From Zopfochytrium polystomum (taxonomy: Eukaryota; Chytridiomycota; Chytridiomycetes; Chytridiales; Chytridiaceae): a stretch of 64,000 nucleotides of DNA. The DNA is taken from positions 372,001-436,000 of the forward strand of contig JAIVFJ010000006.1 in the NCBI GenBank assembly GCA_025765615.1, read 5' to 3'. The position numbers and the translations under genes are program-made. Under the pieces are notes generated by a model. The model searched no databases and had not been told where the DNA came from. It saw nothing but the letters and a program-made list of their open reading frames with translations. Positions 10,644-50,256 of this stretch are shown here, piece by piece. How positions within the stretch are numbered: position 1 is the first letter of the stretch; each line of letters begins with the position of its first letter.

Positions 10644-10697
<54 letters not shown>

Positions 10698-19558: not shown

Positions 19559-21354
19559 ATGGAAACAGACAGCCACTCCCGCGCCTTCTCCGAGGCCTTC
19601 ATGTTCTCGTCCAACACGTTGCAAACGTCAGATGCAGCGCGGCGCGAGATAGCTACTACTTGCTTGGACGACATCGTCAAATTTCTCCGGCAATATTCGT
19701 TTCTTTGGAAGCATCACGCAGTCGACTTCTATCTCAATGACTACTGGAACACTTCAACTGACTTCCCATCCGAATGGAAGGAGCCTCTGCTATCTTCGTC
19801 GTTCAACGATCTTCTTACTCTTGCTTCTGTTGGGTCCGTCCGCTCAGACTGGCCAGCCTCCTTGAAGCGCTTCGTGAGCGACTCTCGGACGATTCCCCTA
19901 AATCGGTCTCCAACCGCGGCTGACCACAAGGCTGAGTTGATCACCCAGCAATGTACGGTCTTGTCAAATCTGCTCTGCCACCCCACCCTCATCGACCCAA
20001 AGCCCAAAAACTCGACCAAAAACAAATTCAGGGAATGTCACCGAAGAAGCAGCTCGAAGTTCAGGTGCTCGCAGGCCTAGTTCACAGCGTCGCAGAAGAA
20101 TTCGGAATTGATTTGGTTATGGACCTTGGGGCTGGCCAAGGCTATTTAGACTCGGTCCTTTGCTATCAGTACGGCAAAATAGTCATCGGCGTTGATGATG
20201 ATCAGGTGCAGACTTGTGGAGCGAAGCGACGGTCCAATCGCCTGCTGGAGCAATACGGAATGACAAAAACAAGGGCGGCGATGTCTCTCACCGCCCCTCA
20301 CCCTTCCGGCCTGAATGTTCCCGAGAATGGTGCAAATGCGAGCTGTGGCCGCATGTTTCACATTAATCGACGCGTTTCACACGCAGAATCTTTCGCGTCA
20401 TTGCTGTCCGAGGTTGTACCGACGATGGAGGCAAGCATGGAGACTGCCAATGCATACAATTCAAAATTGAAAGAGGGCTGGCTGCTGTGCGGTCTTCATT
20501 CCTGTGGAGACCTGTCTGTTGCAGCCATCCGGCATTTTTTAGAGAGCGACGCCCGTGCGCTCGTTCTCGTCAGCTGTTGCTATAACAAACTGTCCGAATA
20601 TTCAAACAAAGCGGGACGAGTGCTTGCCGAAGACGAGTCCAACATGGCTGAACTCGGAGGATTTGGCTACCCCCTGTCATCATACTTGCGGAAGTCCTGC
20701 TTTACTCTTGGATTCACTGCGAGGACACTGGCTTGCCAAGCGACATGTCGTTGGGACGAGGATTGGAAGGATTCCTCCTCGACGGAGCCGGCGGTAGTGC
20801 AGGAGTCTTTGAATCACGAACCCGCTGGTGTGTCGCCCTTCACACGGCACCACTTTAGAGCGCTTCTTCAAGTTCTCTTAAAGGAAACTGGACTACTGGA
20901 CTACGCTCGCCAGCATTCTGCTAGCAGCCCCGAGCAGGATGTTATTGTTGGCCGCTTGCGGTCCACTGCATTTAACAGAGGTTTTGTCGCATACGCCAAG
21001 GTTGCGCTCCCGAAACTTGGAATCGATCTTATTCCTGACTTGGAATATTCCCCCGGCCACAGTTTGAAAACCCAACACCCTGCGCGACCTACTATAGTGG
21101 AGTCCGTGGCTTCAGGCATAGCTCAGCGCTTCGCATGGAGAGAAAAACAAATTGCAGCTGTTTGGACTCTTCGTGCAATGATGGGATCTGCAATTGAGTC
21201 GCTGATACTGATCGATAGAGTTTTGTTTTTGGCGGAGGCTTCCGAAAATGTGGACTCTGTCAAACTTTTCCCCCTCTTCGACCCCGTCGACTCGCCGCGT
21301 AATATGGTGCTCGTTGCCACGAAGAAAAGAAAGGGTATCGTGCAGAGAAAATAA
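19559..21354 (+). CDS. METTL25/RRNAD1-like methyltransferase
   Basis: join(19559..19957,20032..21354), 573 aa. The second exon has the family core: GMSPKKQLEV, SAM site MDLGAGQGYLDSVL, acidic GVDDDQV, GLHSCGDLSVAAIRHF, VLVSCCYNKLSE, YPLSSYLRKS and ARTLACQATCRW. The N-terminal exon contains the FLRQYSFLWKHHAVDFYLNDYW region seen in METTL25 relatives. The 74-bp intron is inferred because the frame changes; its donor (GTCTTG) is weak, though the acceptor (AAATTCAG) is good. Substrate unknown in this family for the most part. The start is 40 bp from the mL58 start (shared divergent promoter). Confidence 0.82.
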
Positions 21355-21472: not shown

Positions 21473-23570
21473 TCACACCACATTAACCCAGTAGGTTTTC
21501 ATCAGCCCTTTTCCCTGCAAGAAATGTTTTATACGTCAGTCTTTTGGATGAACTAAATAGAGTATGTTGACCTTAATATTCATCTCCTCAGGACCAGTTA
21601 TATCAAAACTGCCGTTTTTAATCATGTTGTAGGTAGATTCGCTGATATGAATCTTCATGGGCTTGGAGGTTGATTCCATACTATGATCGAGGTTGTCCCA
21701 ACGGACCGTGAGCCGGTGTTCCAAAAAAAGGAATGGACTTACCGAGAAGCTGTGTTAACGGTGTCGCCAACGATACACCAGTGAGGGTTACTGTCCCCAA
21801 GAATGCCTGCTGTGATTGGACCAGAGTTGAGACCGACTCGGGACATAATTTCCTCGTTATTAACCGTGCGGAAGTTTTTGACCATTTTAATCACATCTGC
21901 GGAAGGGTTAGTCAAATACACTTCCAAGAAAGCCTAAAATCACCGATGGCAAATTTGGCCGCACGCTCCGCATGGTCAGGAATCCTTTCCGGTGCTCCAA
22001 TCACTCCCAAGAAGGCATCGCCAATTGTTTCCACTTTGTACATTCCCCAGCGACGGCAAATTACATCGTATTCCTGCCAAAGCTTGTTCAACGTGGCCAG
22101 CATGTCCTTGGTGCTTGAGTGGCTTGACAGCTGAGGGAAATTGGTAATGTCACTGAAAAAGACGGTAACAGAAGCGTATTCCTCGGCACCCGTCTGAGTC
22201 CCGTTCTTCAACTGCTCAATTAGACTATCGAGAAAATGGGTCATCAGTTTAACTCTACGTTTCGCTAACCAACTTGCAAAAAAAAATAGAGAGAAACAAC
22301 ATACCCAGGCGGCATCAATTTTTCGAGCAGTTTGTCTGATTGGGCCATTTGCTCCTCCATTTCAGACGTAAGGTTCACCATCTTGTTATACCGATCGTTG
22401 GAGCTTTCTTCCAAGGTTGCGCTGACCAGAATCAACGTCAAGAACACTTTCCCAAACAAGTCGGAAATGCAGAAGAGAAGCTCTCCAAATTCGAACGACA
22501 CGAGTTCCCTTGAAACAGAGTGTCTTTCAGAGACAAGGGCGAGCAGCCTACAATCAGAAACCCACCCGCGCTGAATGTACCAAACAAGTGTGAAAGCGTT
22601 CCAAGCGATGAATGTGGTTGCACGGGCGTTGTAGAGCGAAGAAACGTCCAACTGACAGGGCGTTTCGCGGCGGATTGCGCGATTGTACATCCACATGAGA
22701 TTTGCCAGAGTGTAGCAGAAGAAGCACGTAGACAGCGTTGCGAACAGCTCGCTGTACGGCTGCTTAACCATCGCTGCGATGAATCCAGCCGCGAGAAGAG
22801 AATAGTCCATGGTGGCTGTAAGGGAAGCATACTCGCTGTTACGAGTAATGGCCGCAATGAGGTAGACAAGGATGGGGCAGGTGGCGAACCACTCAAAAAA
22901 GCGAGAAACATCCACTGGGTGCCCGACAAAATCAAGGAAGCAAGGCGTGAGACGGTATGCTTGGATAATGTAGGAAATGCACGCGACAATGTTGATGCAA
23001 ATCAGAATCTTTCGAATGCAGGTTAGCTATAGCGTTGGAATACATTGAAGCACGTACTTTTGACAGCTCCTTCTTTTCGGAAGACTTTGACGTGAAATAG
23101 GAAATGCAGGCATAGCAAATGGCAAGAAAGAAAGCAAGGGCGTTGAACATGTAGAACTCGTCCGAAAATCCTCGGTCGAACTCTGGTCCGGGAACTGCGA
23201 GGCAGTATAAGACACCAAGGGCAGTGACAACGGACCAAATGGCAAAGTTGCGTATGATGTAGTAGCTGGCGCCACTGAGGTTCCGCTCTTGCTTGGCCGC
23301 CTGCAGTTTTTGCTGCCAAGTCAATTCTATTTTGGTTGGGAATGAAGAAGAAACATTCAGCGCGTCAGAGCACAGCAGCAGCTGGGAGCATCCAGAAAAT
23401 TGAAGGACAGTACTTTGGCCTGACTGAGGGGCGGAGGCCTCTGCGCCCAGCACCTTGTGGAAAGAAAGGCCGTGGCCGCACCGGTCGCAACGCTTTGAGC
23501 CCTCACTCTTCTGATACTCGCGGCAGCCGCAGTCACGGCACTCGCCTCGACGAACGTCGCCCTCGGCCAT
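21473..23570 (-). CDS. Rhodopsin-guanylyl cyclase (RGC), conventional member
   Basis: complement(join(21473..21514,21572..21680,21743..21896,21944..22224,22305..22508,22566..23008,23058..23326,23414..23570)), 552 aa, eight exons. N-terminus: zinc-ribbon-like Cys/His cluster (C11, C14, C16, C28, C31, H33, H38). Then an extra membrane helix before a seven-helix opsin: TM3 SRFFEWFATCPILVYL (R178, counterion E181, T185) and TM7 CISDLFGKVFL (D306, Schiff-base K310). A coiled-coil linker (SDKLLEKLMPP) leads to a class III cyclase: metal Asp in FFSDITNF and ETIGDAF, guanine-selecting Glu (KVETIGD) and Cys (HWCIVGD), transition-state Asn and Arg (VNTASRMES). All catalytic residues are present. Light-driven cGMP synthesis guides zoospore phototaxis in related fungi. 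Confidence 0.93.
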
Positions 23571-23856
23571 GGTTGGCTGTGCGTGAGTGAGCGTTTCGAG
23601 TTGCCAATTATTTGTTTTTCTCTTTCTTTGTCTTCGGCCAGCTGGGGCTGCAACACAAAAGCTTTATATGCGTTCTTTCGGGTTGACCAGACAGACAGAC
23701 AGACAGACACGACTGCTTCGAAGGTCTAAAATAGAGCAATCTGGAAAATCGTTCTCCTGCTCGAAGCCTTGAAGGGAGAATTCAGACGCGCGATCCTGGC
23801 TCTCTCGCGCTTCGATTCGGTTCAAGCACCAACCAGAACTGTTGGTCGGACGGTCG

Positions 23857-23906
<50 letters not shown>

Positions 23907-24142
23907 CTCACAAACACGCACACGCACACGCACACGGGCACACCCTCTTTCACTCTCTCTCTCTTTCTCTCACTCTCGCAATTCAGGAATCGCGAGGAGG
24001 GATCGGCGGGCCATGCTGTTTCCGAAAATAGAGGAGTGTCATGGATATTTGTTGGGTTCTTTCCCAAAAGCAATGCTTCTTTTTATGGACACACATTGTG
24101 ATTCTGGAAGGTTTCATGGACCTGGATGCCAGAGAGAGAGAG

Positions 24143-24215
<73 letters not shown>

Positions 24216-24456
24216 CGCCACAGAACGCACGCCACAGGCCCCCAATTCGCATTTTTAAAACCGCCCACCCTCCCAACCCCCCCGGTGTTACCAGACCAAA
24301 GCGCCTATTGGCCCTAAGAAACAAAAAAAAAAAACAAAAACAAACAAAAAAAAAACGAACGTGTGAAAGCAAGAAAAACAGCAAGAAAACAAAAGATCAC
24401 ATCGAGCTCCAGAAAACTTCGACCGCGTCCCTGATCGCTGCGAGATAGCTCGAAAG
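23571..24456. promoter_or_regulatory. Shared divergent upstream region of the two rhodopsin-cyclase genes
   Basis: 886 bp separate the two start codons. It contains (CT)n (23858-23908), a short CA-rich stretch, (GA)n (24131-24213) and A-rich sequence (24317-24355). No other gene is visible. Promoter elements cannot be named from sequence alone; a shared bidirectional promoter is inference from the head-to-head layout. Confidence 0.5.
24131..24213. repeat. (GA)n microsatellite
   Basis: About 80 bp of AG dinucleotides with one CG interruption, within the divergent RGC upstream region; a (CT)n tract of similar type lies at 23858-23908. Confidence 0.9.
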
Positions 24457-26313
24457 ATGTCCACCAAACGCAAGTGTTCCCTCGCAAACGGCCGTTAGCG
24501 CCAAGTGTGAAGGGTGGTTCTCTAACTACTTCCCCTAACAGGCCAGAAGTGGGAGGAGAAAATTCAAACCGACAGCGGCCATGTAGACCAGTCGATGATT
24601 TTCCCATGGCTCAATTTCATCGTGTGGATTGTTCTCACTGCTATCATCACGTACTTTCGCGTCACGGTAGCCGGCTCTGTCAAAGTCTTGAACAGGGGGA
24701 CGGCCGACTGGTGGTACAAGTGCGCAACTTACACTTTCGGGGTTGCTTTCGTCCTAGCCTACCTGGGCACCAAAAGTACGCGCGACAAAGAAAAAAAGGC
24801 TACGATATCATGCTTCATGTTTATTTTCTCCGTTGTTGGCCTGTCTTGGATTATTTCATACCTTCGCCTGACGGTGACCCTTGTTGACACGGCCCGAAAC
24901 CCCCTTGACCTCTGTCGATGGACGGAATGGATTCACGATATGTGCTGCATTGCCTACATCATTGGTCGAGTTACAAACGCCGACCCGCGGAACACCTACA
25001 CAAGCATCTCCTCGTCCTTCTGGATTGGCGCCTTTGGATTCCTGGCCGCGCTTGCTAGACAACCTTACTGTGAATTTTTCGCCACTCTCTCAACCGTGTC
25101 GAACCTGCACGCGTTCGCTCACATGGAATACTCGTTCCAAAGAGCTATCGATGGGGAGAAATCGTGCAAGTATGACGTTCCAACGTTGAAGGCCATTCGA
25201 GCAGTTACATATTTTGCTTGGACTTTTATAACGCTCGCTTGGTACATTCAAAAAAGGTTTGGGGCGCCCATCCGTTGATTTTGTTTGTCTAGTAAATGCG
25301 ACTGACTTCAATTGCAAGCCTGCTGATCTCATTCGCTGCTGGGGAGGCTGGAATTTTCATTGGAGAATGCATTGCGAAGATCGGTCTTATGCTCTTAATT
25401 ATAAACAGCTCGAGCGACGATACAGGCAAAAAGGTGGACCAAATGGCCATGATCAGTACTGAAATCCAGTCGGCAATGGAAAATACCGACAAACTGCTGG
25501 AGAAAATGATTCCCTCCAGGTATTTCGACTCTGTAACTGATGTAGGGCCATCTAACTGTGACATTGTGATAACTTCCAGTGTATTGGATCAAATCAAAAG
25601 TGGCCAGGCAGCAAGTGCCGAAGAATATGCAAGTGTTACTGTTTTCTTCAGCGACATTGCGAACTTCACTGTTCTCTCCGGGCGCACTTCTGTGAGTTAC
25701 CTGCCTCATATGAGTTGGTCATCCACTCATCATCTTTAAGACGAAAGATATGCTTGCGTCATTGAACAAAATGTGGGTCGAGTATGACGCGATCTCCCGA
25801 AAGTACGGCATGTACAAAGTGGAGACTATCGGGGATGCGTTCCTCGGGGTTGTGGGTGCTCCAGACAAAGTTGCCGACCACGCGGAACGGGCCGCCGACT
25901 TCGCTCTCGGTAATATAGCAAAAGAAATCACTGCCGATTTAATACATCGGTCTCCAGATATTATTGAAATGATCAAGACTTTCCGCACTGTTACCAATGA
26001 GCCTATTCAAATTAGGGCGGGATTGTGCTCTGGGCCTGTAACAGGTGGTATTTTAGGCGAGTCGAACCCTCATTGGTGCATCGTCGGTGACACCGTCAAC
26101 CTCGCCGCCAAGATGGAGTCATCATCAAAGGTTATGCAAGTGCACATTGCACAGTCTACCCACGACCTCCTGAAGAGTTGCCAACGATTTGTATTGACGG
26201 AAGGCGACGACGTTAACATCAAGGTGAGTGTTCACCTTATTCAGCCGGCTGCCTGTTCATTCCCTTGAAATTAGGGACAAGTGATTAAAACGTGGTTCTT
26301 GACGCGCAAGTGA
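24457..26313 (+). CDS. NeoR-type rhodopsin-guanylyl cyclase (predicted far-red/near-infrared sensor subunit)
   Basis: join(24457..24493,24542..25256,25319..25519,25580..25691,25741..25909,25958..26223,26275..26313), 512 aa, seven exons. Starts MSTKRKCSLANG; no zinc cluster. An extra helix (WLNFIVWIVLTAIITYF) precedes the opsin. TM3 is RWTEWIHDMCCIAYII with E141 and D145; TM7 is FIGECIAKIGLMLL with E267 and Schiff-base K271. This Glu/Asp/Glu triad is the one known for NeoR. Linker MENTDKLLEKMIP, then cyclase: FFSDIANF, KVETIGDAF, HWCIVGD intact, but VNLAAKMES has Lys463 where the transition-state Arg normally sits. Intron positions match the divergent paralogue, except that one in the VNTASR region is missing here. 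Predicted to work as a heterodimer with that paralogue. Confidence 0.92.

Positions 26314-41739: not shown

Positions 41740-41797
<58 letters not shown>

Positions 41798-42703: not shown

Positions 42704-42756
<53 letters not shown>

Positions 42757-50162: not shown

Positions 50163-50256
<94 letters not shown>

What the first reader, a model, noticed from the sequence alone, without database searches (positions are those of the whole stretch)
21473..26313. Head-to-head pair of rhodopsin-guanylyl cyclases: a probable two-subunit, two-colour light sensor
Two paralogues (552 and 512 aa) with the same architecture (extra helix + opsin + coiled coil + class III guanylyl cyclase) diverge from one 0.9 kb region and share most intron positions. 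One has conventional opsin residues, the other has NeoR-type residues. Fungal RGCs of this kind are known to form heterodimers; here the partners sit next to each other, which makes pairing and co-regulation a direct prediction and would allow one locus to encode a complete dual-wavelength cGMP switch.
Basis: partly seen in the sequence, partly recalled or inferred. Interest (0 to 1): 0.95.

Follow-up and report, generated by a model that had tools for sequence, protein, structure and literature searches.

The report
Chytrid paired light-sensing cyclase genes
Two neighbouring genes of a zoospore-forming fungus read as the two halves of a light sensor already known from related fungi, one half of the visible-light type and the other of the far-red type, so this is a clean new example of a known system rather than a new one.

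Summary
Two rhodopsin-guanylyl cyclase genes diverge from an 886-bp region: a visible-type subunit (minus strand, 23570-21473, 8 exons, 552 aa) and a neorhodopsin (NeoR)-type subunit (plus strand, 24457-26313, 7 exons, 512 aa). Five intron positions are shared in place and phase. The minus protein has the conventional E181/T185/D306/K310 site and an intact cyclase NxxxR; the plus protein has the NeoR triad E141/D145/E267, K271 and NxxxK. In a 68-protein tree each falls in its expected clade with strong support. A truncated public protein, otherwise identical to the minus protein, shows that the genome is Zopfochytrium polystomum (Chytridiales). The arrangement is not new: published work on Rhizoclosmatium globosum shows NeoR/RGC heterodimers and a divergent gene cluster, and calls this common in chytrids. 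'Two-colour switch' is overstated: in R. globosum the visible subunit drives the enzyme, and NeoR switching had a 1.4-fold effect in one pair and no significant effect at saturating GTP in the other. New details: a corrected RGC model, a NeoR that I did not see annotated, and a Cys/His-rich exon 1 seen on visible-type proteins and on no NeoR. Verdict: new member of a known kind.

The parts
21473..23570 (-). Visible-type rhodopsin-guanylyl cyclase gene, 8 exons: 23570-23414, 23326-23058, 23008-22566, 22508-22305, 22224-21944, 21896-21743, 21680-21572, 21514-21473; 552 aa
   Evidence: Splice model with GT..AG introns; Pfam Guanylate_cyc and Bac_rhodopsin; 74% identical to Cladochytrium tenue P0050, 63% to R. 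globosum P0028, which carries the residue numbers published for RGC1
23414..23570 (-). Exon 1 of the visible subunit: C11-x2-C14-x-C16 ... C28-x2-C31 ... H38, zinc-ribbon-like module
   Evidence: Strict motif in 23 of 37 visible-type proteins with a long N-terminus (23 of all 90 that start with M), 0 of 24 NeoR-type proteins; AlphaFold2 pLDDT 87-88 for residues 11-40, mean 76, pTM 0.50; no significant fold match
22415..23147 (-). Opsin domain of the visible subunit (Pfam match, residues 113-321, introns included): E181, T185, D306, K310, T282
   Evidence: Pfam range; residues; coordinates worked out from the exon bounds
21473..22224 (-). Exons 5-8, holding the visible-subunit cyclase domain with all catalytic residues present: D383, E423, D427, C492, N499, R503
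24457..26313 (+). NeoR-type rhodopsin-guanylyl cyclase gene, 7 exons: 24457-24493, 24542-25256, 25319-25519, 25580-25691, 25741-25909, 25958-26223, 26275-26313; 512 aa
   Evidence: Splice model; NeoR clade 100/99; 57% identical to Chytridiales sp. JEL 0842 P0001 over 94%. The short first exon is the least certain part
24542..25519 (+). Exons 2-3, holding the NeoR-type opsin: E141, D145, E267 triad, Schiff-base K271, T243; TM3 reads E-W-I-H-D-M-C-C
25580..26313 (+). Exons 4-7, NeoR-type cyclase domain: metal D343 and D387, base E383 and C452, but N459/K463 in place of NxxxR
23571..24456 (.). 886-bp shared upstream region; holds a (TC)n tract 23858-23909 and an (AG)n tract 24131-24213, each within 244-339 bp upstream of its gene and (GA)n in the sense direction of that gene
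   Evidence: other GA/TC tracts occur in the window, so no function is claimed

Best explanation
The locus encodes the two subunits of a chytrid heterodimeric rhodopsin-guanylyl cyclase. Shown here: gene structures, clade membership, residues, no second copy of the pair found in the genome. Inferred from the R. globosum system: the subunits pair; visible light on the minus-gene opsin turns on cGMP synthesis at the one competent site, built from base and transition-state residues of the visible subunit (E423, C492, N499, R503) and metal aspartates of NeoR (D343, D387); the mirror site, with K463 in place of arginine, is non-catalytic. The NeoR opsin is expected to be far-red absorbing, bistable and fluorescent and to modulate at most. 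The cGMP would steer the zoospore through a cGMP-gated channel (not looked for here).
For: Both proteins in their expected clades (NeoR side 100/99; minus protein in a 19-protein visible clade 100/100; 68 proteins). The R-position is K in 20 of 24 E-type proteins and R in 84 of 95 D-type proteins, with K463 and R503 here. Triad and lysine present. Five shared introns mark the two as products of one duplication. Published biochemistry of the R. globosum pair: no light response of single subunits, response on co-expression with NeoR; one active site with RGC1 base residues and NeoR metal residues; NxxxR absent in NeoR.
Against: No expression, spectrum or interaction data for this species. The NeoR pocket differs from the R. 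globosum-like sequences at several sites (for example M, C, C at 141-143 in place of E, A, N), so its colour is not certain. N459 is kept here, whereas R. globosum NeoR has T455; and introducing N and R into R. globosum NeoR-cat did not restore activity, so the K is a marker, not a proven cause. Three of 24 E-type proteins keep R (P0057, P0083, P0102). No RPE65-type carotenoid oxygenase (PF03055) was found in the genome, so the retinal source is open. In 8 of the 16 organisms no same-length contig pair is listed.
Confidence: 0.88

Rival explanations
1. Two independent homodimeric light-activated cyclases that merely sit side by side.
For: The visible subunit has a complete active site; the isolated R. 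globosum RGC1 cyclase domain is active as a homodimer; homodimeric RGCs exist in Blastocladiomycota; a listed abstract says cryo-EM indicates NeoR homodimers (PMC12046560).
Against: NeoR-type cyclase has K463 at the arginine place; full-length R. globosum subunits show no light response alone; both proteins fall in the clades of the heterodimer subunits.
Confidence: 0.06
2. Heterodimer in which the far-red NeoR chromophore is itself a full second input (true two-colour cGMP switch). This is a stronger form of the best explanation, not exclusive of it.
For: Far-red background or pre-illumination raised RGC2/NeoR photocurrents in one study; the NeoR triad is kept here.
Against: No photoresponse in the red in the action spectrum; no significant effect of NeoR switching on RGC1/NeoR at 2 mM GTP, and some decrease of turnover; the 2025 authors report no significant effect in HEK293T cells.
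Confidence: 0.12
3. One of the two is decaying or a pseudogene.
For: Long end branch of the plus protein (0.64 against a median of 0.26); the public protein set seen here holds only a truncated copy of the minus gene.
Against: Both reading frames are whole after splicing, with chromophore and metal residues kept; the truncated public copy matches our model exactly once one retained 57-nt intron (19 aa) is taken out.
Confidence: 0.03

Closest known systems
Rhizoclosmatium globosum NeoR/RGC1/RGC2 heterodimeric rhodopsin-cyclases (PMC7655827, PMC8815786, PMC12264004)
   Same: Opsin + linker + class III cyclase; E-D-E triad in NeoR; the NxxxR arginine replaced by K in NeoR and kept in RGC1; divergent gene order
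   Different: Here one visible partner instead of two (no other copy found in the genome); NeoR TM3 motif HDMCC instead of HDEAN; T282 where RgRGC1 (P0028) has A278; N459 kept where RgNeoR has T455
Chytridiales sp. JEL 0842 pair P0001/P0020
   Same: Nearest listed NeoR relative; both types listed with one contig length (65336)
   Different: 57% identical NeoR; the public model of the visible subunit starts without the Cys-rich N-terminus
Blastocladiella emersonii BeRGC/BeGC1 (P0038), homodimeric
   Same: Same architecture, E-T-D-K site, N-terminal Cys/His motif
   Different: Functions as a homodimer, single RGC gene, 626 aa with a longer N-terminus

Membership tests
NeoR (plus gene) | Three carboxylates E136/D140/E262 (Rg numbering) with Schiff-base lysine | tested here: met
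   E141, D145, E267, K271 in aligned columns
NeoR (plus gene) | Falls inside the NeoR clade | tested here: met
   100/99 support in the full-length tree of 68 proteins. Its place within the clade is unsettled: first branch among 19 in that tree (89/62 for the 18 others), but next to the Chytriomyces-type group in a quick cyclase-only tree (83)
NeoR (plus gene) | Cyclase NxxxR motif degenerate | tested here: met
   N459/K463: the arginine is replaced, the asparagine is kept
NeoR (plus gene) | Far-red absorption, bistability, fluorescence | not testable with these tools
   Needs purified protein
Visible subunit of heterodimeric RGC (minus gene) | Conventional E-T-D-K site and complete cyclase residues | tested here: met
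   E181, T185, D306, K310; D383, E423, D427, C492, N499, R503
Visible subunit of heterodimeric RGC (minus gene) | Falls inside the visible-subunit clade that holds R. globosum RGC1 | tested here: met
   19-protein clade 100/100, next to Cladochytrium tenue 100/100
Heterodimeric RGC system | Divergent gene pair | tested here: met
   Opposite strands, start codons facing, 886 bp apart
Heterodimeric RGC system | Activity only on co-expression | not testable with these tools
   Needs expression assay
Heterodimeric RGC system | Coiled-coil linker | not tested
   Linker aligned (13 of 44 identical); no coiled-coil prediction was run
Rubredoxin-like zinc ribbon (exon 1 of minus gene) | Significant fold match | tested here: inconclusive

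The most novel reading that the evidence does not exclude
The Cys/His-rich exon 1 is an ancient zinc-binding module of rhodopsin-cyclases that serves placement of the receptor in the zoospore eye and not catalysis; NeoR lost it, so each heterodimer carries exactly one tag, on the visible subunit, and NeoR reaches the rumposome only as a passenger. This would help to explain strict pairing in the cell. It fits the published finding that truncating residues 1-43 of the homodimeric CaRGC does not impede but rather increases activity (PMC8575461 passage). Zinc binding and placement are both untested.
Probability: 0.2. Interest if true: 0.6.

Novelty: new member of a known kind. Interest (0 to 1): 0.32.

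Why it matters
It adds a NeoR, not seen annotated in the search made here, with a different TM3 motif (HDMCC) to a small set of very red-shifted fluorescent rhodopsins, and a corrected model of its partner gene. Since both types of this species fall inside their own clades, the duplication is older than the split of Zopfochytrium from the other NeoR-bearing species sampled. It does not open a new kind of system.

Tried and rejected
Two-colour switch as stated: weakened by published data. Shared promoter from GA tracts: each gene has a sense-strand (GA)n tract within 244-339 bp upstream, but six uninterrupted GA/TC tracts of 42 bp or more occur in the window, two of them here, so I claim nothing. 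Extra RGC copies: none found (first 358 aa of the minus protein as query: 6 matches, all at this locus). Zinc-ribbon fold by structure search: not significant. The alignment A1 shows all six Cys/His invariant, but its members were chosen by the motif, so that is circular; the fair counts are those. By eye, from the first 70 residues printed, 8 of the 14 long visible-type N-termini that miss the strict pattern carry a near variant (such as CxxCxxC...CxxC...H; P0101 lacks the H, P0073 is printed only in part). 'NeoR branches first in its clade': only 89/62 in the full-length tree and not upheld by the cyclase-only tree, so not claimed. Retinal supply: PF03055 gave 0 candidates, the phytoene/squalene synthase family gave 5 matches; a gene cut into short exons could be missed. 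Downstream cGMP-gated channel and coiled coil: not searched. Zinc in the RGC literature: seen as listings only, and word searches in five papers (see full report). Species in RGC papers: one search lists 7 papers naming Zopfochytrium, none on rhodopsins by title; the 2023 survey cited as Broser et al. 2023 is not held under the DOI I tried, so it may already include this species. What I know of that survey is recalled, apart from the sentences that cite it.
Full report
What is there. Two genes lie head to head. The minus gene (23570-21473) has 8 exons and codes for 552 aa; the plus gene (24457-26313) has 7 exons and codes for 512 aa. The start codons are 886 bp apart. Seven and six introns of 47-87 bp were modelled; five sit at the same alignment column and phase, which chance placement does not give (mean 0.02, maximum 2 in 100,000 trials). 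Two minus introns and one plus intron are not shared. Four introns are multiples of three that read through without a stop; there the splice rests on relatives and shared positions.

Which organism. Database protein P0094, named by its source as Zopfochytrium polystomum, is identical to the minus protein over 304 aa once 19 aa, one retained 57-nt intron, are taken out. NCBI taxonomy places the species in Chytridiales, Chytridiaceae. That public model is 323 aa, starts inside the opsin and keeps the intron. In one search, of 268 hits the best 120 are listed; the only one of this species is P0094 (49% over 59%). So the NeoR seems to be unannotated; models outside 0.55-1.75 times the query length would not have been seen.

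What the proteins are. Minus: Pfam Guanylate_cyc (E 1.1e-53) and Bac_rhodopsin (E 2.6e-23); plus: Guanylate_cyc (E 5.8e-48), no Bac_rhodopsin hit at E up to 1. The plus opsin aligns with rhodopsin phosphodiesterase chains (7d7q, E 9e-13) and with full-length chytrid rhodopsin-cyclases. Site residues are E181/T185/D306/K310 in minus and E141/D145/E267/K271 in plus. The published NeoR triad is E136/D140/E262 (PMC8815786 section 7 part 1; PMC7655827 section 9). P0008 (Rhizoclosmatium sp.) and P0005 carry exactly that numbering, and P0028 that of RgRGC1.

Phylogeny. Of 131 proteins aligned, 68 were put in a tree. The 20 proteins with glutamate at the second counterion site form one side of a branch (100/99). 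The minus protein is sister to Cladochytrium tenue (100/100) inside a 19-protein visible clade (100/100). The plus protein branches first among 19 NeoR-type proteins if the odd environmental P0057 is set aside, but support is moderate (89/62), and in a quick cyclase-only tree it sits next to the Chytriomyces-type group (83). Its place inside the clade is therefore open.

Catalytic asymmetry. In R. globosum only one of two sites works: RGC1 gives the base residues and NeoR the metal residues (PMC12264004 section 12), and NeoR lacks NxxxR (section 13). In the window the visible subunit has N499/R503 and NeoR N459/K463. Across the aligned set the arginine position is K in 20, R in 3 and T in 1 of 24 E-type proteins; it is R in 84, K in 6 and a gap in 5 of 95 D-type proteins. 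So the window pair fits the published polarity. Putting N and R into R. globosum NeoR-cat did not restore activity.

Colour. The visible subunit triggers the enzyme in R. globosum; the action spectrum shows no response in the red, yet 660-nm light enlarged the RGC2/NeoR response, about 1.4-fold. For RGC1/NeoR, NeoR conversion gave some decrease of maximal turnover and no significant change at 2 mM GTP.

Gene order elsewhere. From papers: the R. globosum genes are clustered with neor on the complementary strand, an arrangement called common in various chytrids (PMC12264004 section 7; PMC8815786 section 5). From the tables, classed named organisms other than Zopfochytrium have a NeoR-type protein, and in 8 a visible-type protein is listed with the same longest-contig length: JEL 0842, Phlyctochytrium planicorne, Dinochytrium, Physocladia, Entophlyctis luteolus, Chytriomyces hyalinus, Chytridium lagenaria, Chytriomyces sp. 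MP71. The other 8 show none, which fragmentary assemblies could explain. Orientation was not readable.

The N-terminal module. Exon 1 of the minus gene encodes a C-x2-C-x-C ... C-x2-C ... H motif. The strict pattern is in 23 of 90 visible-type proteins that start with M, or 23 of the 37 that have at least 35 residues ahead of the alignment anchor, and in 0 of 24 NeoR-type proteins, of which only 1 has such a long N-terminus. Many short N-termini may be model errors. It also occurs in homodimeric BeRGC (P0038). The exon-1 peptide is predicted with pLDDT 87-88 over residues 11-40 (mean 76, pTM 0.50), but no fold match is significant. The intron after it is at the same place and phase in NeoR, whose exon 1 codes for 12 aa. 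Truncation of residues 1-43 in CaRGC does not impede but rather increases activity, so a role outside catalysis is likelier; placement in the eye is my inference. Word searches of the main texts of PMC12264004, PMC8575461, PMC4046227, PMC9616733 and PMC8815786 gave 0 occurrences of zinc; one search found 3 papers holding all of BeGC1, rhodopsin, guanylyl cyclase and zinc, and one search listed 10 of 18,360 looser matches, none on these proteins by title; both seen as listings only.

Rest of the light-sensing repertoire. No further rhodopsin-cyclase was found in the genome. Two closely similar conventional opsin loci lie on contigs C168 and C462. No RPE65-type carotenoid oxygenase was found.

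A side result. Two environmental proteins combine the two types crosswise. P0057 has a NeoR-type opsin (100/99.8) with a visible-type cyclase (99/93.8; grouping with NeoR cyclases rejected, AU p 0.010). P0024 has a visible-type opsin (99/87.8) with a NeoR-type cyclase (99/92.3; grouping with visible cyclases rejected, AU p 0.0065) (48 proteins). Against it: both are long branches; the groups were named after the first trees were seen; the larger quick cyclase tree leaves P0024 unresolved at the base; profile scores separate P0057's opsin only narrowly (182 against 176 for the homodimer profile) and did not flag P0024 as mixed; and among the 120 listed of 4380 hits no relative of P0057 was nearer than 57% over half of it or 47% over nine tenths. 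Misassembly is not excluded.

Verdict. A real, well-modelled, new member of a known kind. Papers: I read named sections of PMC12264004, PMC8815786 (5, 10 and part 1 of 7) and PMC7655827 (part 1 of 5, and 9), and passages of PMC8575461, PMC4046227 and PMC9616733; PMC12046560 was seen as a listing with the start of its abstract. The 2023 survey was not available.

Noticed in passing
P0057 and P0024 (environmental proteins, source lgn): Crosswise combinations: NeoR-type opsin with a catalytic-type cyclase (NxxxR intact), and visible-type opsin with a NeoR-type cyclase (GxxxK). Could be natural opsin swaps between the two subunits, or chimeric assemblies.
   Followed up: partly
P0042 (Synchytrium microbalum) and P0048 (environmental): Visible-type opsins with K in place of the transition-state arginine (NxxxK), outside the NeoR clade; may be separate origins of an asymmetric pair.
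   Followed up: no
G000 C168:113372-113954 and C462:33811-34300: Two closely similar conventional fungal opsin loci with DWTLTTP and D-x3-K motifs; possibly two haplotype copies.
   Followed up: partly
window 23858-23909, 24131-24213, and 10648-10689, 41745-41794, 42711-42752, 50169-50252: Long GA/TC repeats; in the shared upstream region each gene has one at a similar distance.
   Followed up: partly
G000, whole genome: No RPE65-type carotenoid oxygenase found although retinal proteins are present; a published survey reports carotenoid oxygenase in two other Chytridiales species.
   Followed up: partly
P0083 (environmental, 464 aa): Glutamate at the second counterion site with A at the D140 place and an intact NxxxR.
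   Followed up: no
window 19951-21354, plus strand: A 467-aa open frame ends 118 bp short of the stop end of the minus rhodopsin gene, tail to tail; looks like a methyltransferase-like protein by eye, not searched.
   Followed up: no
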